DNA of 64,000 bases from Geothrix limicola (GTDB lineage Bacteria > Acidobacteriota > Holophagae > Holophagales > Holophagaceae). The notes below the pieces were generated by a model. It was not told where the DNA came from, searched no databases, and was given only the letters and a program-made list of their open reading frames with translations. Positions 50,792 to 64,000 of the stretch are shown here, piece after piece. The stretch is taken from the NCBI RefSeq assembly GCF_030268085.1, contig NZ_BSDE01000002.1, positions 1-64,000 on the forward strand, given 5' to 3'. Both the position numbers and the translations under genes were made by a program. Each line of letters starts with the position of its first letter. The first letter of the stretch is position 1.

Positions 50792-51607
50792 ATGAAGATG
50801 CACGCGTTCGCACCCTGCGCCGCCCTCGCGCCCTACGTGCGGGTCTTCGAGATCGTCGAGGCCGAGGCGGCCGCGGACCACACCCTCGTTCCGGAATCGG
50901 GCCTGATCCTCGGCTTCCGCTACGCGGGTTCCTCGCGCCTGCAGGAGGGCGCCGCCGAGGTGCCCGTGCCAAACCACGTGGTGACGGGCCTGCGGGCCAC
51001 GGCGCGACGGATGCTCACCGCCCCGGGCAGCGGCATCATCCTGGCCAAATGCCACGACGGCGCCGCCGGGGCCTTCCTCGACCTGCCCCTGCACCACCTT
51101 TTCGGGGCGACGGTGGCCCTCGAAGAACTGGTGGATCCCGCCGAGGTCGAAGCCGCTTCCGCCCAAATCCGCGCGGCGAGGAGCCATCGGGAGCGCGTGG
51201 ACGCCTTCGAGCGGTTCCTGCTGCAGCGTTTGGCGCGGCGGGCCTGGGGGCCGGACCGGGTCGTGGATGCGGCCGTGCAGGCCATCCGCAGCGACCCGGG
51301 CGCCCTGCGCGTGGGCGCCCTCGCGCAGGAACTGGGGCTCAGCATCGACGGGCTGGAGAAGCGCTTCCGCCGCAGCGTCGGCGCCTCGCCCAAGCAGCTG
51401 GCGGCCATCCTCCGCCTGCGGCGGGCCATCGGCTCCCACCGCAGGGGCGCCCCGCTGACGCGGGTGGCACTCGATGCGGGCTACTACGATCAGGCCCACT
51501 TCAATCGCCACTTCAGGGCCGCCCTCGGCGTTTCGCCAAAGGCCTTCCTCCAGGGGCCGCCCTGCGGCGGACCTACTGGGGCAGGATCAACTCAGTCCGG
51601 CGATTGA
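50792..51607 (+). CDS. AraC-family transcription regulator
   Basis: A protein of 271 residues. The C-terminal AraC domain has both helix-turn-helix units: VGALAQELGLSIDGLEKRFRRSVGASPKQL and VALDAGYYDQAHFNRHFRAALGVSPKAF. The N-terminal domain (DHTLVPESGLILGFRYAG, NHVVTGLRATAR) looks like the DUF6597-type sensor. It is divergent from the ABM gene, with 127 bp between, and overlaps the OmpA gene end by 35 bp (convergent). Confidence 0.9.
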   Translation: MKMHAFAPCAALAPYVRVFEIVEAEAAADHTLVPESGLILGFRYAGSSRLQEGAAEVPVPNHVVTGLRATARRMLTAPGSGIILAKCHDGAAGAFLDLPLHHLFGATVALEELVDPAEVEAASAQIRAARSHRERVDAFERFLLQRLARRAWGPDRVVDAAVQAIRSDPGALRVGALAQELGLSIDGLEKRFRRSVGASPKQLAAILRLRRAIGSHRRGAPLTRVALDAGYYDQAHFNRHFRAALGVSPKAFLQGPPCGGPTGAGSTQSGD

Positions 51608-52271
51608 GCGACCGCCCGCTTTCGGTGTCGTTCCCGGCCACGGGATAGGCGCTGCCAAACCCTTCGGACTTCAAGCGATTCTTCGGCACGCCCTGCGCCT
51701 CCAGGCGGCCCGCCACGGCCCGCGCGCGATCCAGGGAGAGGGCCAGGTTGAAGTCGTTGGTGCCCTGGCTGTCGGTGTGGCCGCAGAGGTGGACCTCCAG
51801 CGCCGAGAAGGGGCCGTTGAGCAGGCGGGCTTGCTGATCCAGCAGCGGAAGGAAGTCGGGCTTGAGGTCCGCGCGGTTGACGTCGAAGGTGACGCCGGCG
51901 CCGTAGTCGAACACGAGAATCCGCGGAAGCTTCAGGACCTTCGCCATGGCCGAGCGGCCCGCGCCGAAGGTGAAGCTCATCTCCACCCGGTCCAGGTTCA
52001 GGTACTTGATCCGCTTCTCCACCAGGACCTCCTGGCCGAAGGTGGCCGTGATGGGCAGCAGGTCTTCGGTCGCGTTCACCGCCAGGGTCTGGGGCGTTTC
52101 GCCGATGGGCTTGCCCCCGCGGAACAGGGCGGCCTTGCCGGGATCGGAGGTGATGGTGACCTTGATCGCCGGCTGAGGGGCCGGCGGCTCCGGCGTCCGG
52201 CAGCCAAAAGCCAGGATGCCGACGGTGAGGGAGCAAACGAGGGCGCAGAAGGCTGAAGATTGAGCGTTCAT
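51573..52271 (-). CDS. OmpA-family lipoprotein
   Basis: A protein of 232 residues. The signal peptide ends in lipobox LAFGC. After a PEGA-like beta domain (VTITSDPGKAALFRGGKPIGETP), the C-terminus is an OmpA peptidoglycan-binding domain: GHTDSQGTNDFNLALSLDRARAV, GFGSAYPVAGNDTESGRSLNRRTEL. The ATG at 52271 has GGAGG upstream and overlaps the kinase stop by 4 bp (ATGA). Anchors the outer membrane to the wall and may present a signal to, or be a target of, the coupled kinase. Confidence 0.88.
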   Translation of the reverse strand: MNAQSSAFCALVCSLTVGILAFGCRTPEPPAPQPAIKVTITSDPGKAALFRGGKPIGETPQTLAVNATEDLLPITATFGQEVLVEKRIKYLNLDRVEMSFTFGAGRSAMAKVLKLPRILVFDYGAGVTFDVNRADLKPDFLPLLDQQARLLNGPFSALEVHLCGHTDSQGTNDFNLALSLDRARAVAGRLEAQGVPKNRLKSEGFGSAYPVAGNDTESGRSLNRRTELILPQ

Positions 52272-53767
52272 GGTGCCTCCGGGAAATCGATGCCCGCTGC
52301 CACGGTGCTTTCGATGGGCCTGCCCTCCCCATCCAGCGCGGGCTTGTAGCGGGAGGCCAGGGCGAGGGCCTTGGCCGCTTCGGCGCACTCGGGCGCCACC
52401 TTGGAAAGCAGCCGGCAGGACTTGACCGTGCCGTCCTCGCCCACCACCAGGGACACGGCCACCTTGGTGCCCAGGCAGGCGGCGGGCACGGAGGTGGGCG
52501 TGAAAGTGGACGCGGCCCCCCCTTCGATCAGCTGCGGGTAGGTGACCACCCGGCGGGGTGGAGGTTCCGCGGGCGCGGCTTTGGCCGGAACGTCGGCGGG
52601 AGCCTGCTTCGGGGCCGGCGGAGGCGGCGTCTTCCAGGGGGTCGGCGAAACTCCGGCCACCAATCCAGTAGGAGCCGGCGCGTCGACGGACCTGCGCGGG
52701 AGGGTCCAGGCAAGCAGCGCCACGGCGGCCAGGAGGGCGGCCCCCAGAACGAGGCTGCCGGCGCCGCTCCGCTTGGGCCCCTTCGGCAGGTCCACGGTCG
52801 GATCGAGCCCTGGATGGTGGTTCTCCGCCGCCTCCTCCGCCGGAAGGGGCCTGAGGGGCTCGTGCGTGATCGAAACGCTGCCCAGGCCTTCGAGGGGGAG
52901 GTTCCACGCGATTCCCGCCGCCGCGCAGGCCTGCACCAGGGCCTCGCGCATCTCGTGGAGGCCCGCCCAGCGCCGGTTCTTGTCACGGCGCAGCGCGCGC
53001 ATGACCACCTCGCTGAAGACCGGATCCAGGTGCGGCAACAGTGTCCCGATGGGCGTGGGTTCTTCCTGCACCCGCTGCATCAGCGTCTGGATGGCGCCTT
53101 CCTCGCTGAAGGGGAAGACCCCCGTGAGGGTGCGGTACAGCGTGATGCCGAGGGCGTACTGATCCGCGCGGCCATCGACCTCCTCGCCCAGGGCCTGCTC
53201 GGGCGAGAGGTAGGCGGGCGTGCCCAGCAGCTGGCCCGTCTGGGTCTCCTGGATGTCCCCCCAGACCTTGGCGATGCCAAAGTCCGCCAGGAAGGGCCGA
53301 CCCTCCTGGTTGAAGATGATGTTGGCGGGCTTGATGTCCCGGTGGATGACACCCCGCTCATGGCTGTAGGCCAGTGCGTCCAGGAGGGGGACGGCGATGC
53401 GGGCCGTCATGGCCGCATCGAAGCGCCAACCCGCCTGCAGCAGGTCCGCCAGGGTCGGGCCGTCCACCAGCTGCATGGAGTACCACTGGATGCCTTCTTC
53501 TTCGCCGAAGGCGTAGACCTTGACGATGCGCGGGTGGTCCAGCGCGGCGACGGTCTTCACTTCATGGGTGAAGCGGCGGGATCTGAGCCCGGTGCTGGCG
53601 TCTTCGGAGGCGACCTTGAGGGCTTCGCGCCGCCCCAGCTGGCGGTTCACGACTTCGAAAACCGAACCCCAGCCGCCCTTGCCCACCAGAGACACGAACT
53701 CGTACCGGTCCGCCAGCCGGACCGCAAGCTGCATCCACCGTTCCTGGGACATGGGCCCATTATCCAT
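52268..53767 (-). CDS. Membrane Ser/Thr protein kinase with TonB-like C-terminal domain
   Basis: A protein of 499 residues. Kinase domain about 20-290: glycine loop VGKGGWGSVFE, Lys in EALKVA, catalytic HRDIKPANIIF, DFG, and GTPAYLSPEQ. Then a juxtamembrane stretch, one membrane helix (SLVLGAALLAAVALLAWTL, about 345-365), a Pro/Ala-rich spacer and a TonB_C-like domain (VSLVVGEDGTVKSCRLLSK, ASRYKPALDGEGRPI) on the periplasmic side. The start is ATG at 53767; ATG at 53752 is an alternative. Coupled to the OmpA lipoprotein by a 4-bp overlap. Confidence 0.9.
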   Translation of the reverse strand: MDNGPMSQERWMQLAVRLADRYEFVSLVGKGGWGSVFEVVNRQLGRREALKVASEDASTGLRSRRFTHEVKTVAALDHPRIVKVYAFGEEEGIQWYSMQLVDGPTLADLLQAGWRFDAAMTARIAVPLLDALAYSHERGVIHRDIKPANIIFNQEGRPFLADFGIAKVWGDIQETQTGQLLGTPAYLSPEQALGEEVDGRADQYALGITLYRTLTGVFPFSEEGAIQTLMQRVQEEPTPIGTLLPHLDPVFSEVVMRALRRDKNRRWAGLHEMREALVQACAAAGIAWNLPLEGLGSVSITHEPLRPLPAEEAAENHHPGLDPTVDLPKGPKRSGAGSLVLGAALLAAVALLAWTLPRRSVDAPAPTGLVAGVSPTPWKTPPPPAPKQAPADVPAKAAPAEPPPRRVVTYPQLIEGGAASTFTPTSVPAACLGTKVAVSLVVGEDGTVKSCRLLSKVAPECAEAAKALALASRYKPALDGEGRPIESTVAAGIDFPEAP

Positions 53768-53901
53768 CCGTGGGAGGATTCCGGGGGCCCAGCATTCGAG
53801 ATAATCTCTCGGCAGCCTAGACAGGGGCCTCCTCCTCACGGAAAATGCCGAGACTGTCCCGTTTACATCCCGAGCGATTCCCGCTCCCAGGGGTCCAGGC
53901 C

Positions 53902-55554
53902 ATGCCGGATTTCCTTCTCCACATTCCCGGGCACCGCGCTCAGCCGCTGAACCAAGCCAGGCCTGAGCTTCGGATCGGCCGGGCCCCGGGACAGGATGTC
54001 GTCCTGGAAGATCCGGCCATCTCGCGCAGCCACGCGCGCTTCCTGTGGAAGGAAGGGAAGGCCTACCTGGAGGACCTGGGCTCGCGGCACGGCAGCCGCA
54101 TCAACGGACGGAAGACCTCGGGCCGCTGCGAAATTCAGCCCGGCGACCGGATCCTGCTGGGTGAAGTGGAGCTCTCTCTTTCGCCCTGCGAATCCCGCGC
54201 GGAGCCCGGCCTCCCGCGGCGCACGAAGGAAGAGACGGTCACCCTCTCCCTGTCCGTGGAGAACCTGCGGTACGAAACGCGGCCGCCCGGCGGCGACGTC
54301 TCGGGGCCCGGCGCCGTGGACATCCTCCATCACCTGAGCCGCGACCTGGTGTCTCGCCGGTCGCCCCGGAGCCTCCTCGAGGACCTGCTCGAGCGCCTGA
54401 TGTCCCACCTCGACGCGAGCCACGGCGCGGTCTACCTGAAACAGCCCGGAGGAGCCCTGGAATGCCTGGCGGCGCGATCCGTGGGCACGGATCCCGGCGC
54501 GGCGGCCTCCCTCTCGCCCGGCACCATGGAGGCCCTGTTCGAGCGGAAGGAAGCGCTGCTGATGGATGCGACGCTGGCTGCTCCGAACCACCCGGCGGCT
54601 CCGAACGGCGTGACGGCAGCCACCCCGGGCGACACGACCCGGTCCGTGATGGTGGTTCCGCTCGAATCCCAGGGCGAGGTGCTCGGGCTGATGCATTTCG
54701 GTGCGAGCGAGACCCGCGGCCCCTTCACCGAGCAGGAGATCCGCTTCGTCGTCTCCCTGGGCAACCTGGCGGCCACCCGCATCATTCATCAGCGCACGGC
54801 GGAGGAACTGCAGCGCAAGGAAGATCTGGAACGCCAGATCCTCGCCCTGGAATCCCAGACCCGCGCCAAGGGGGAGCTGCTCGCCTTCATCAGCCACGAG
54901 ATCCGGAACCCGCTCACGGCGCTCATCGGTTTCCTGGAGCTCGCCCAGCGGGCCAATCTGCCTCCGGCCGCGCAGGCCCACCTGCAGAAGGCCGAGCGCT
55001 CCGGCGCCACCCTGCTGAACATCCTCAACGAGGTGCTGGACTTCTCGAAACTCGAGGCGGGCGGCATCGAACTGGAGCGCATCCCCTTCCAGCTTCAGGA
55101 AGTGCTTGAAACCGTCCTGGATCTCTTCGGCCCCCAGGCCTCGGCCAAGGGCATCACCCTCCGGCTGCAGCGCGATCCCTCGCTGCCCACGGACTGCGTC
55201 GGCGATCCGCTTCGGCTCGGGCAGGTGCTCACCAACCTGGTGGGCAACGCGGTGAAGTTCACCTCCGACGGGCACGTCTCGCTCGCGGTGGTGCCCGGGG
55301 AGGATCCCGCGCGGCTCCGCTTCACCGTCACGGACACGGGCATCGGCATCCCGGAAGAACGGATCGACCACCTCTTCAATCCCTACACCCAGGGCGAGGC
55401 GGCCACCACGCGACGCTTCGGCGGCACCGGCCTGGGCCTCTACATCTCAAGCCGGCTCGTCGAAATGCAGGGCGGCACGATCTCGGTGGCGAGCAGGCCC
55501 GGCCAAGGCAGCGCCTTCGCCTTCAGCCTGCCCCTGCTCGCTTCGAACCGCTGA
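53902..55554 (+). CDS. FHA-GAF histidine kinase
   Basis: A soluble protein of 550 residues. The FHA domain (about 5-95) has the phospho-Thr-binding residues: LRIGRAPGQD, ISRSHARF and LGSRHGSRING. A GAF domain follows (about 150-310), then a short coiled coil. The kinase core has H-box FISHEIRNPLTALIGF (His about 332), LVGNAVKFTSDG, DTGIGIPEE and GGTGLGLYIS. No receiver domain. It is divergent from the Ser/Thr kinase gene, 134 bp apart. The FHA domain may read phospho-Thr made by that kinase. The ATG at 53902 is preferred: the FHA fold starts directly after it. Confidence 0.9.
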   Translation: MPDFLLHIPGHRAQPLNQARPELRIGRAPGQDVVLEDPAISRSHARFLWKEGKAYLEDLGSRHGSRINGRKTSGRCEIQPGDRILLGEVELSLSPCESRAEPGLPRRTKEETVTLSLSVENLRYETRPPGGDVSGPGAVDILHHLSRDLVSRRSPRSLLEDLLERLMSHLDASHGAVYLKQPGGALECLAARSVGTDPGAAASLSPGTMEALFERKEALLMDATLAAPNHPAAPNGVTAATPGDTTRSVMVVPLESQGEVLGLMHFGASETRGPFTEQEIRFVVSLGNLAATRIIHQRTAEELQRKEDLERQILALESQTRAKGELLAFISHEIRNPLTALIGFLELAQRANLPPAAQAHLQKAERSGATLLNILNEVLDFSKLEAGGIELERIPFQLQEVLETVLDLFGPQASAKGITLRLQRDPSLPTDCVGDPLRLGQVLTNLVGNAVKFTSDGHVSLAVVPGEDPARLRFTVTDTGIGIPEERIDHLFNPYTQGEAATTRRFGGTGLGLYISSRLVEMQGGTISVASRPGQGSAFAFSLPLLASNR

Positions 55555-60441: not shown

Positions 60442-63400
60442 TCAGCCGGTGAAGGGCGCCAGCTGGGCCTGGAGCTCCTTCATGCCGAAGGGCTTGGACA
60501 GCAGGGTGACGAAGGGGTGGGCCTCCACCAGGTCCTGCGCGGTCTGATCGGCCCGGCCCGTAGCCAGCAGCACGGGCACGGTGGGCAGCAGGGCCCTCAG
60601 CCGCGGCAGGGTGCCCGCGCCGCCCAGGCCCGGCATGTTCATGTCGAGGATGACGACGTCGGGCTTCAGGCCCGCCTCCACCATCGCCAGGGCCTCCTCA
60701 CCGCTGGGCGCGAGGGTGGGCTGGTGGCCCAGGAGTTCGAGCAGACCCTGCATGGAGGTCTGGATCAGCTCGTCGTCATCCACCATGAGCACCTTCAGCC
60801 CGCCGCGGCTCGCCATCGTGCGGTAGGCCCCGGTGGTTTCCGCCGCCCGGGCCGGGGCCTCGCAGGCGGGGAAGCGCATGGTCACGCAGGTCCCCTTCCC
60901 GGGTTCGCTGTGCAGGTCCATCTGGCCGCGGTGGGTCTTCACGGTGCTGTAGACGATGGACAGGCCCAGGCCCGTGCCCTTGCCGATCTCCTTCGTGGTG
61001 AAGAAGGGATCCAGGGCCTTCTCGAGAATCTCCTTGGCCATGCCCACGCCCGTATCCTCCACCTGGACCTCGACCCAGCCCGGATCCAGGTTGCGCGTGC
61101 GCAGGGTGAGGACGCCGTTCTCGGGCATGGCGTCCACGGCGTTGACGCTGAGGTTCATGAAGGCGTGGGTGAGCGCGCCCGGATCGCCGAGGATGGGCCG
61201 CAGGTCGGGCGCCAGTTCCATGACGAGGCGCACCTTGGACAGGGTGGTGCGCTCCAGCAGGCGGACCTCCTCGCGGAGGATGGTGTTCAGGTCCAGCTCG
61301 CGCATTTCGGCGGCGTTCTGCCGCGCGAAGCTCAGCAGGCTCTTCAGCATGTTCCCGCCCCGCTCGGCGGCCTTGATGATGGTGCCGAAGGCCTTCTGGG
61401 TCGGGCTTCCGGCCGGCTGGGCCTCGATGTGGGCCGAGGCCAGGCCGAGGATGGCCCCCAGCACGTTGTTCATGTCATGGGCCACGCCCCCGGCCAGGCT
61501 GCCCAGGCTTTCCATCTTCTGGGCCTGGTGCAGCTGCACTTGGAGCACCCGCTGCTGCTCCTCCGACTGACGGCGCTGGGTGATGTCGGTGATGATGCCG
61601 ACCAGGGCCCGCAGGCTGCCATCCACGTTCTCCAGCCGCCGGCCAGACAGGTGGCCCCAGAACTCCGTGCCGTCGGCGCGGAGGTAGCGCCGTTCCAGGG
61701 ACACGGATTGGATCTCTCCGTCAATGAGCTGGTGCATCCGCCGGTCGCCGGACGTTTTCTCGTCCGGATGAAGGTGGTCGGTGTAGGCAGTGCCGATGAG
61801 CGCCCCGTTCTCCATGCCGAACATCTCCGCCATGCGCCGGTTGGCGAAGCGGATCTCGCCCTTCGGGGACACGAGGATGATCCCGGCGCCAGAGGCCTCG
61901 AAGATGATCCGCAGCTGCTCTTCGCTTTCCCGCAGGGCCTCTTCGGCCAGCCTGGCCTCCGTAATGTCGTGGGCCACGCCGATGAACCTGGGTGCGCCAT
62001 CGGAAGTCGGCAGCAGGGCCCCGTTGGCCACGAACCAGCGCCACGAGCCATTGGCGTGCCGCACGCGGTACGGTGGGCTCGCCTCGGCCTCCCCCGTCGA
62101 CAGCACCCGGGTCAGGTAGGCCATGCAGGGCGCCACATCGTCTTCATGGACGAAGGGGGCGAAGGGCCTGCCGATGACCTCGCTGGCCGGGAATCCGAAG
62201 TGCCGTTCCCAGGCCGGGGACACGAAGACGAAGGTGCCCTGGGCATCCAGCGTGAAGATGACGTCCCTCGACTGCTCGATGTAGGTCCGGAAACGCGCCT
62301 CGCTTTCGCTGAGGCGGACCTCCATCTCCTTGCGCTCGGTGATGTCCCGGAAGATCCCGATGACCAGCCTTTCGCCCTCGGGCTGGTTGGCCCAGGGCCG
62401 GCCCGTGACGAGGAGGATGCGCGGTGTCCCGTCTTCCCGCCGGATCCTCAGCTCGTAGGTGCTGGAGATGCCCTTGGGCCGACGCAGGGATTCCCGCCGC
62501 ACCACCTCAGCCTGATCCTCGGGCAGGTAGTCCATCAGGCAGCGGCCCACCAGGTGACCCGGCGCCACGCCGAAGATCTCCTCGGCCACCGGGTTCACCA
62601 CCACGAAGCGCTCGTCGGCATCGACCATGCCGAAGCCCTCGCCCTGGCTGTTCAGCAGTTCGCGGTACATGGTCTCCAGCCGCTTGCGCCCGGTGATGTC
62701 GCGGAAGGTGCCCATCAGCACCGTCCGGCCGCCGGCCTGCACCAGCTGCGCGAGTACTTCCACAGGGACCGTGGTGCCATCGGAACGGAGGATCCGGTCC
62801 TCATTGGGCAGCGTGAAGCCCTGCTCCCGCGATTCCTGGATGTGACGCTGGAAGGCCTCCCGCGCGCTGGTGGCATGTTCGGGGGGATGCAGCGCCGCCT
62901 GATCCAGGCCGATGATCTCCTCGCGGGAGCGGCCCAGCAGGCGGCAGGCCGCCTCGTTGGCGTCCAGGATCGTCTTCGTATCGGGATCCGCCAGGAAGAT
63001 GGCGTCCGGGGCCTTTTCGAAGAAGGCGCCAAACCCCTTGGCACTGGCGGCCTGAGCCTCCTCCGCGCGCTTCTTGTCCACCAGGTCCCAGGCCAGGTCC
63101 GCCAGCCGCTGGAAGGCCTCGGCCTCGGCTTCGCGGTAATCCGTCGCCTTGTTGGCGACCCCGAGCACCGCCACCACCCGCCCGGAGCGCCGCACGGGCA
63201 CGATCAGCTCACGCACCACCACTGCGTTCAGAGGGGACGCCCCCTCCGCCAGCTGGGCGCAATCGTTATGGATCAGGGGATGCCCCATGCGCAGGCAGTC
63301 CGCCCAGACCGCCGCCGGCTGGCCCAGGGCCGGCCCCCCGGTTTCCAGCGCCCTCGCCCTCTGGTGGCGCGTGGCCCAGGCTTGCAGGGGAAGGCTTTGC

Positions 63401-63615
63401 GGATCCTCTGCCACCGTGTGGAGGAATCCCAGGCAGGACCCGGTCAGGCCTTCGGCCTCATCCAGGAGGGCGCCGAGCAGCTCGCCGAGGGAGCCCCCCG
63501 TGGACCGTTCCATGAGGCAGGCTCGCGCCGCCAGCACCGGTTCCAGACCACCACCCGCCCGCTCCTGGTAGATGGGCAGGCCTGAGGGTGGGTTGGGAAC
63601 ATCCGAGGCTGTCAT
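60442..63615 (-). CDS. GAF-multi-PAS hybrid histidine kinase with receiver
   Basis: A soluble protein of 1057 residues. GAF (about 40-190), then four PAS domains (about 200-330, 335-455, 460-580, 590-705), HisKA ([13 protein letters not shown], about 712), HATPase ([30 protein letters not shown]) and a C-terminal receiver ([10 protein letters not shown]; Asp in [10 protein letters not shown] about 990; Lys in LLSKPFG). The ATG at 63615 is the likely start: the GAF fold begins about 20 residues later and the longer frame overlaps the divergent gene. No strong ribosome site is seen. Signal unknown. Confidence 0.9.
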
Positions 63616-63748
63616 GGGGGCAAAGGGTGTGGGCAGATGTTTCTTTTCGACCAGCCCGCAGGGTACTGGAGATTGGTACCTGGGCCCACCGGATCCGGCT
63701 TGGCATCGTGGACTGCCGATCCGCCCGCGAATCAGCGATACTCGCCCC

Positions 63749-64000
63749 ATGTCTCTCCTTTCCCGCCCCGCCTTCCGCTGGTCCGCCCTAGCCGCCCTCT
63801 GGGCCCTGGTGGGCACCGTGCTGTGGATCGTCACGGTGCAGGTCTTCCTCCTCGCCCTCAACCCCTTCTGTCAGGTCCAGCGGCCCCGCACGGCCCGGGT
63901 GATCGTGAAAAGCGTGGACCGGGATCCCGACAGCCAGCTCACGGATTTCGTGACGGTGAAGCAGGGCGAGGATGAACGGGTGCTCCGGATGTCCAAGGCC
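63749..64000 (+). CDS. Membrane protein of unknown function (partial)
   Basis: The first 84 codons are in the window; the gene continues past the right edge. One hydrophobic helix (SALAALWALVGTVLWIVTVQVFLL, about 11-35) is followed by a soluble part starting PFCQVQRPRTARVIVKSV. Divergent from the large hybrid kinase with 133 bp between. I do not recognise the family. Confidence 0.65.
   Translation, partial: MSLLSRPAFRWSALAALWALVGTVLWIVTVQVFLLALNPFCQVQRPRTARVIVKSVDRDPDSQLTDFVTVKQGEDERVLRMSKA

What the first reader, a model, noticed from the sequence alone, without database searches (positions are those of the whole stretch)
51573..55554. Ser/Thr kinase-OmpA pair divergent from an FHA histidine kinase
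A membrane Ser/Thr kinase with a periplasmic TonB-like domain is translationally coupled to a wall-binding OmpA lipoprotein. Divergently, a soluble histidine kinase begins with an FHA domain that has intact phospho-Thr-binding residues. Together they could pass an envelope signal from Ser/Thr to His phosphorylation, a link rarely seen in one locus.
Basis: inference. Interest (0 to 1): 0.58.

Follow-up and report, generated by a model that had tools for sequence, protein, structure and literature searches.

The report
Envelope kinase linked to histidine kinase
Three neighbouring bacterial genes look like one signalling unit, in which a wall-facing Ser/Thr kinase and its outer-membrane partner would control a histidine kinase through a phospho-threonine-binding domain; the gene set recurs in related genomes, but the hand-over of the signal has not been tested.

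Summary
The Ser/Thr kinase gene overlaps the OmpA-lipoprotein gene by ATGA, and a soluble FHA-GAF histidine kinase (HK) is head-to-head; catalytic and phospho-Thr-binding residues are conserved.

Kinase orthologs lie in 16 of 77 genomes of the family (one cut by a contig end). In 8 of 16 a related FHA-HK is head-to-head; a ninth has a related HK without FHA-GAF. The 8 FHA-HKs form one clade inside an FHA-GAF family whose usual output is a SpoIIE-type phosphatase (24 of 47 have a kinase domain within 700 bp). So the HK looks like an output-domain swap.

Six of the 8 HKs carry a receiver and Hpt; five of these loci have an OmpR-type regulator beyond OmpA, the sixth is cut. The window genome and G052 lack all of these, so the HK here is an orphan.

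Against a purely FHA-based reading: 13 of 16 kinase loci touch a two-component gene, and in 5 of the 13 it has no FHA. Ser/Thr-to-His coupling is therefore plausible but inferred, and FHA may be dispensable.

Closest precedents: QseG and YfiB (lipoproteins), EspA-PktA5, DgcB. New variant of a known kind.

The parts
51573..52271 (-). OmpA-domain lipoprotein, 232 aa: signal peptide with lipobox Cys24, a PEGA-like beta domain (about residues 35-103), a peptidoglycan-binding OmpA domain (residues 128-224)
   Evidence: PEGA matched in 4 of 17 orthologs, not in the window's own protein
52268..52271 (-). ATGA overlap of kinase stop and OmpA start (translational coupling inferred)
   Evidence: the coordinates give the same overlap in 7 of 7 triad loci with a complete OmpA gene
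52268..53767 (-). Hanks-type Ser/Thr kinase, 499 aa: kinase domain 22-268, juxtamembrane linker, one TM (about 338-354), Pro/Ala-rich periplasmic linker, TonB_C-like domain 435-495
52796..52798 (-). codon of Thr324 in the juxtamembrane motif PTVDLP: candidate phospho-Thr docking site for the FHA domain (post hoc lead)
53768..53901 (.). about 134 bp divergent intergenic region between the kinase and HK start codons
   Evidence: start codons chosen by alignment
53902..55554 (+). soluble histidine kinase, 550 aa: FHA 24-87, GAF 153-294, HisKA 322-387 (His332), HATPase_c 434-545; no receiver or Hpt

Best explanation
A membrane-spanning signalling unit. An outer-membrane lipoprotein bound to the wall (OmpA/PEGA-like) is made with, and senses for, a transmembrane Ser/Thr kinase whose periplasmic end is a TonB-like domain. 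When the envelope signal arrives, the kinase phosphorylates a Thr, on itself (candidate Thr324) or on the histidine kinase. The FHA domain of the divergently encoded histidine kinase binds that phospho-Thr, and this together with the GAF domain sets the autokinase activity of the His domain. In most orthologs phosphate would then go His -> receiver -> Hpt -> an OmpR-type regulator encoded next door; in the window genome that tail and regulator are missing, so the output must be a regulator elsewhere. Shown: anatomy, conservation of active-site and FHA residues, recurrence of the gene set, joint presence or absence of REC-Hpt tail and regulator, origin of the HK within an FHA-GAF-phosphatase family. 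Inferred: OmpA-kinase contact, Thr phosphorylation, FHA docking, direction of the signal.
For: Kinase orthologs in 15 of 77 family genomes at E <= 1e-60, plus one cut by a contig end (G067). All 15 have the OmpA ortholog on the same contig, 14 directly downstream on the same strand. FHA-HK head-to-head in 8 of 16. The 8 HKs form one clade, SH-aLRT 100, in a tree of 65 FHA-GAF proteins. REC and Hpt in 6 of 8. The OmpR-type regulator is convergent with OmpA in 5 of these 6 loci (the sixth is cut), and there is no regulator ortholog anywhere in G000 or G052, the two whose HK lacks the tail. FHA-GAF-SpoIIE proteins: kinase domain within 700 bp in 24 of 47, within 2 kb in 29 of 47, next to kinases of at least four other clades; the own genome has such a pair too. 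In the own genome 2 of 76 HisKA matches lie within 2 kb of a Pkinase match, one of them the window's. 13 of 16 kinase loci have a two-component gene as neighbour. Kinase and FHA residues invariant.
Against: No biochemistry. G069 has a related hybrid HK head-to-head but without FHA-GAF (SH-aLRT 94). Three loci have another HK, and one a CheY-like protein, in place of the FHA-HK. Three of 16 loci show no two-component neighbour. The kinase-OmpA pair exists without any FHA-HK in 5 of 6 distant genomes (the sixth is cut), so the pair does not need it. Two OmpA orthologs (G056, G074) have no kinase beside them. Outside the family only 2 of 20 FHA-GAF loci have a kinase within 2 kb. The linker Thr motif was found after looking; a loose form is also in 3 of 8 loci without FHA-HK. 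The genome has more than 20 Ser/Thr kinases, so the FHA could serve others.
Confidence: 0.5

Rival explanations
1. Self-docking. The Ser/Thr kinase phosphorylates a Thr in the HK's own FHA-GAF linker, and FHA binds it within the HK dimer, as in the diguanylate cyclase DgcB.
For: DgcB precedent, ligand from its own N-terminus (PMC6733907 abstract). The HK linker after FHA carries at least one Thr in a short acidic-then-hydrophobic stretch (window KEETVTLSL) in all 8 HKs as aligned (read by eye).
Against: The HK begins directly with FHA, so there is no N-terminal tail as in DgcB. The linker alignment is gappy and the Thr context varies. The idea is post hoc.
Confidence: 0.2
2. The kinase-OmpA pair acts on neighbouring two-component proteins by direct phosphorylation of the HK or regulator; the FHA domain is an accessory that some lineages lack.
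For: 5 of 13 two-component neighbours have no FHA: G069 hybrid HK, small HKs after or beside OmpA in G068, G030 and G061 (the last cut, HisKA just under cut-off), CheY-like protein in G071. The HK cores of G068 and G030 are unrelated to the triad HKs. Ser/Thr kinases modifying two-component proteins are known in Firmicutes (titles PMC4478028, PMC6010298 in listings; abstracts seen in part only).
Against: FHA residues are fully kept in the 8 FHA-HKs, and FHA-GAF proteins with another output sit beside other kinases.
Confidence: 0.2
3. Neighbours without biochemical coupling: a shared divergent promoter region, or chance conservation of gene order.
For: No interaction data. The window HK has lost the downstream relay. 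Pair and HK have different phylogenetic depth.
Against: Recurrence at 46-51% kinase identity over several genera, and the same theme with other kinase clades.
Confidence: 0.1

Closest known systems
EspA with PktA5 (and a second kinase) of Myxococcus xanthus
   Same: A hybrid histidine kinase working with Ser/Thr kinases; PMC4320627 (passages) says PktA5 appears to act with another kinase and EspB and may interact with EspA. That EspA has an FHA domain and that the genes are clustered is recalled; the EspA paper PMC2446797 is not held.
   Different: Not compared by sequence here. The present system has an OmpA lipoprotein partner, a TonB-like kinase end, a GAF domain, and one clade nested in FHA-GAF-phosphatases; the output is an OmpR-type regulator where present.
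FHA-GAF-SpoIIE phosphatases beside Ser/Thr kinases in the same bacterial family
   Same: Same FHA-GAF front, often head-to-head with a Ser/Thr kinase (18 of 47 within 700 bp and head-to-head, 6 downstream on the same strand). The own genome has one (C1:1076961).
   Different: Output is a PP2C-like phosphatase, not a histidine kinase; the kinases are of other clades with TPR, PD40 or PEGA domains.
QseG-QseE-QseF of E. coli
   Same: An outer-membrane lipoprotein activates an inner-membrane sensor kinase in the periplasm (PMC6075780 abstract).
   Different: There the lipoprotein acts directly on a membrane histidine kinase; here its likely partner is a Ser/Thr kinase and the HK is soluble.
YfiB-YfiR-YfiN
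   Same: YfiB structures are among the best PDB matches of the OmpA domain; an OmpA-type lipoprotein as signalling input (role recalled).
   Different: No YfiR or diguanylate cyclase in the locus; the output is a kinase.
DgcB of Bdellovibrio (FHA-gated enzyme)
   Same: An FHA domain gates an attached enzyme by binding a phosphopeptide (PMC6733907 abstract).
   Different: GGDEF output, and the ligand comes from its own N-terminus.
HstK-type proteins of cyanobacteria
   Same: Ser/Thr kinase and histidine kinase in one signalling unit (title in the reference list of PMC1262709).
   Different: One fused polypeptide; here separate genes joined, if at all, by FHA.

Membership tests
Hanks-type Ser/Thr protein kinase | Pkinase domain with Lys, HRD and DFG | tested here: met
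   K51, D144, D162 invariant in 15 of 15
Hanks-type Ser/Thr protein kinase | Ser/Thr kinase activity | not testable with these tools
   no biochemistry
TonB C-terminal domain | sequence and fold match | tested here: met
   Pfam above cut-off; ten best fold hits are TonB, at modest scores
TonB (energy transducer) | works with ExbB-ExbD to power outer-membrane receptors | not tested
   the N-terminus is a kinase; no ExbB/ExbD search was made
OmpA-type peptidoglycan-binding lipoprotein | lipobox Cys and OmpA domain with conserved Asp and Arg | tested here: met
   Cys seen in the 15 of 17 rows whose start was included
FHA phospho-Thr reader | GR, SxxH and NG residues | tested here: met
   8 of 8
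FHA phospho-Thr reader | binds a phospho-Thr peptide of the neighbouring kinase | not testable with these tools
   needs an experiment
HisKA histidine kinase | H-box His, N, G1 and G2 boxes | tested here: met
   His332 and the boxes invariant in 8 of 8
Phosphorelay hybrid HK with OmpR-type regulator | receiver and Hpt in the HK, regulator gene at the locus | tested here: not met
   absent from the window HK and no regulator ortholog in the own genome; met in 5 of the 7 other FHA-HK loci
EspA-type FHA hybrid HK | sequence relationship to EspA | not tested
   EspA sequence not at hand; resemblance recalled

The most novel reading that the evidence does not exclude
A complete Thr -> His -> Asp signalling chain across the envelope: wall-bound lipoprotein, TonB-ended Ser/Thr kinase, and a histidine kinase switched on by FHA docking. 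It arose when the phosphatase output of an FHA-GAF protein was swapped for a histidine kinase. The kinase-OmpA module is a general front end that different lineages have plugged into different two-component systems.
Probability: 0.4. Interest if true: 0.75.

Novelty: new variant of a known kind. Interest (0 to 1): 0.55.

Why it matters
Ser/Thr and His-Asp phosphorylation are usually studied as separate bacterial networks that cross-talk by chance phosphorylation. Here one gene set appears to join them by design, with a reader domain for phospho-Thr on a histidine kinase and an envelope sensor on the Ser/Thr kinase. Nature supplies the comparison set: with and without FHA, with and without the phosphorelay tail, and with a phosphatase or a histidine kinase as output. 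That makes the direction and need of the link directly testable.

Tried and rejected
Type VI secretion (Ser/Thr kinase + FHA + OmpA-like) came to mind; I made no dedicated search for its genes and only saw none by name among the Pfam-scanned window proteins, so it is left aside rather than excluded. A direct chance estimate for two-component neighbours (10% per locus assumed) is not used, because the loci are not independent. The genome-contig scan with the OmpA protein found 3 loci, all proteobacterial MAGs matching only the OmpA domain, so the organism could not be named; that it is a Holophagaceae-like acidobacterium is a guess from memory. Rfam over the window gave no match. The OmpA fold search lists hits of about 102-142 aligned columns that match the OmpA domain, so the N-terminal domain stays 'PEGA-like' on 4 of 17 orthologs. 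The FHA-GAF tree is a quick tree (SH-aLRT only, long branches meet). In it the HK of a second G070 locus (L107) falls among SpoIIE-type proteins (97), whereas its HK core falls beside the triad HKs (97): either recombination or a second fusion; not resolved. The species of the window is in the same genus as G033 and G018, yet its HK core groups with G052 (89), so transfer or loss cannot be told apart.

Rows dropped before counts: G067's kinase (cut, runs of X) was left out of alignment A3 but counted in the 16; OmpA loci G056 and G074 have no kinase and are not in the 16. A second, unrelated FHA-HK group (5 rows: L114, L121, L125, L128, L141) and the 4 FHA-GAF rows of unassigned output are not in the 47 or the 8. 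Of the 14 SpoIIE rows without a kinase in reach, 3 lie near contig ends.
Full report
What is there. On the minus strand a Hanks-type Ser/Thr kinase gene (52268-53767) runs into an OmpA-domain lipoprotein gene (51573-52271); the start of the second shares ATGA with the stop of the first. On the plus strand, about 134 bp away, starts a soluble FHA-GAF-HisKA-HATPase histidine kinase (53902-55554). The kinase has one transmembrane stretch, a Pro/Ala-rich linker and a TonB_C domain. The lipoprotein model (pLDDT 89) has a beta-rich N-terminal domain and an OmpA domain whose best solved relatives include PA0833, OprF and YfiB. The FHA residues GR, SxxH and NG, His332 of the HK and the catalytic residues of the Ser/Thr kinase are conserved in all aligned orthologs.

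Co-occurrence. Of 77 genomes of the same family, 15 hold the kinase at E <= 1e-60, and G067 holds a copy cut by a contig end, 16 in all. Seventeen genomes hold the lipoprotein at E < 1e-40: the 15, where it is directly downstream in 14 and differently arranged in G068, plus G056 and G074, which have no kinase beside it. An FHA-HK is head-to-head in 8 of 16: the window, G033, G018, G070, G052, G066, G051, G067. The ATGA overlap is seen from coordinates in 7 of 7 of these with a complete lipoprotein gene. Among 396 genomes across the phylum the lipoprotein profile finds 14, six of them outside the family; five of these six have the kinase adjacent, the sixth is cut, one (G392) has the gene order reversed, and none has an FHA-HK. 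So the kinase-lipoprotein pair is the older core, and the FHA-HK is an addition within this family.

Where the HK came from. All 56 FHA-GAF matches below 1e-20 in the family were fetched. Forty-seven have a SpoIIE-type phosphatase as output (checked by Pfam for L115; the rest by a home-made profile) and 9 a histidine kinase. In a quick tree of 65 FHA-GAF sequences the 8 head-to-head HKs are one clade (SH-aLRT 100) lying among the SpoIIE-type proteins. Of 20 FHA-GAF loci taken from 20 other families of the phylum (one each from the 215 of 396 genomes with a match), 17 have a SpoIIE output, 3 are unassigned and none an HK. The SpoIIE form is therefore probably older and the HK a swapped-in output. 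The ninth HK (L107) gives conflicting trees.

A family habit. A kinase domain lies within 700 bp of 24 of the 47 SpoIIE-type genes, within 2 kb of 29; 14 have none in reach, 3 of them near contig ends. The partner kinases belong to at least four clades other than that of the window's kinase, with TPR, PD40 or PEGA parts. The own genome has one such pair (C1:1076961, kinase domain 397 bp away) besides the window's (267 bp). Outside the family this habit is weak: 2 of 20 loci have a kinase within 2 kb. In the own genome only 2 of 76 HisKA matches lie within 2 kb of a Pkinase match.

Output side. Six of the 8 HKs continue into a receiver and an Hpt domain. Five of these six loci carry an OmpR-type regulator (REC + Trans_reg_C, shown by Pfam for G033, G070 and G051) convergent with the lipoprotein gene; the sixth (G067) is cut. 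The two HKs without the tail, the window's and G052's, are in genomes where the regulator search found nothing at E <= 1e-25. Tail and regulator thus come and go together, which is what a phosphorelay would give. G030 has a regulator ortholog elsewhere, with no HK beside it.

A wider link. Of the 16 kinase loci, 13 have a two-component gene as direct neighbour: the 8 FHA-HKs; a hybrid HK without FHA-GAF head-to-head in G069, whose HK core groups with the 8 (SH-aLRT 94); small HKs beside the lipoprotein gene in G068, G030 and, cut and just under the Pfam cut-off, G061; and a CheY-like protein in front of the kinase in G071. G072, G073 and G076 show none (G076 on a 4.8 kb contig). Outside the family one of six (G415) has a convergent hybrid HK. 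This supports a bond between the Ser/Thr module and two-component signalling and at the same time weakens the claim that FHA is what makes it.

A lead on docking. The linker before the kinase's transmembrane stretch is poorly conserved, except for a motif around Thr324 (window PTVDLP). T-[AV]-[DE]-[LMW] is present in 7 of 7 triad kinases and 0 of 8 others; a looser form is in 7 of 7 and 3 of 8 (Fisher p 0.026; found after looking, lineages not independent). An alternative is a Thr in the HK's own FHA-GAF linker, by analogy with DgcB (PMC6733907, abstract).

Mechanism. My best reading is: envelope state -> lipoprotein -> TonB-like end of the kinase -> phospho-Thr -> FHA of the HK -> His autophosphorylation -> (in orthologs) receiver, Hpt, OmpR-type regulator. 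The anatomy and the genetic linkage are shown; each biochemical arrow is inferred. An outer-membrane lipoprotein driving an inner-membrane kinase has a precedent in QseG-QseE (PMC6075780, abstract). Ser/Thr kinases acting with a hybrid HK have one in EspA-PktA5 (PMC4320627, passages); that EspA itself carries FHA is recalled.

Literature. Searches for FHA + histidine kinase + threonine kinase + Acidobacteria found no paper, and Geothrix/Holophaga + kinases found one, which from its listing is a ribosomal-protein tree study. Searches listed reviews and other systems; in the listings and passages I saw none describing this gene set. The library holds open-licence papers only. PMC1262709 (passages) notes that FHA genes cluster with Ser/Thr kinases in another genome, so the general theme is old; the link to a histidine kinase and an envelope lipoprotein is the new part.

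Noticed in passing
window 50792-51607 +: An AraC-family regulator gene converges on the OmpA gene and overlaps its 3' end by about 35 bp, where five orthologous loci have an OmpR-type regulator instead.
   Followed up: partly
L083 178-2205 - (G069): Hybrid HK with two receivers and Hpt, head-to-head with the kinase, related to the triad HKs but without FHA-GAF: a natural deletion, or a pre-fusion form.
   Followed up: partly
L081 3768-4721, L085 10310-11218, L088 8736-9125 (cut): A small HK of another clade directly after the OmpA gene in three loci.
   Followed up: partly
L107 (G070 C1:4431000-4444000): A second FHA-GAF-HK whose FHA-GAF part and HK core fall in different places in trees: possible recombination or a second output swap.
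   Followed up: partly
own genome C2:315206-317559: Cluster of a Ser/Thr kinase gene and two FHA protein genes on one strand.
   Followed up: no
L118, L124, L125, L128: Tandem arrays of two or three related PD40-type Ser/Thr kinase genes beside FHA-GAF-SpoIIE genes.
   Followed up: no
L210 and L222 (other families): FHA protein, kinase with FHA, and FHA-GAF-SpoIIE on one strand in a row.
   Followed up: no
L176 (G030 C55): Ortholog of the OmpR-type regulator far from the kinase-OmpA pair, with no HK near it.
   Followed up: partly
window 60442-63861 -: Large hybrid histidine kinase gene with a C-terminal receiver, one of 76 HisKA matches in this genome.
   Followed up: no
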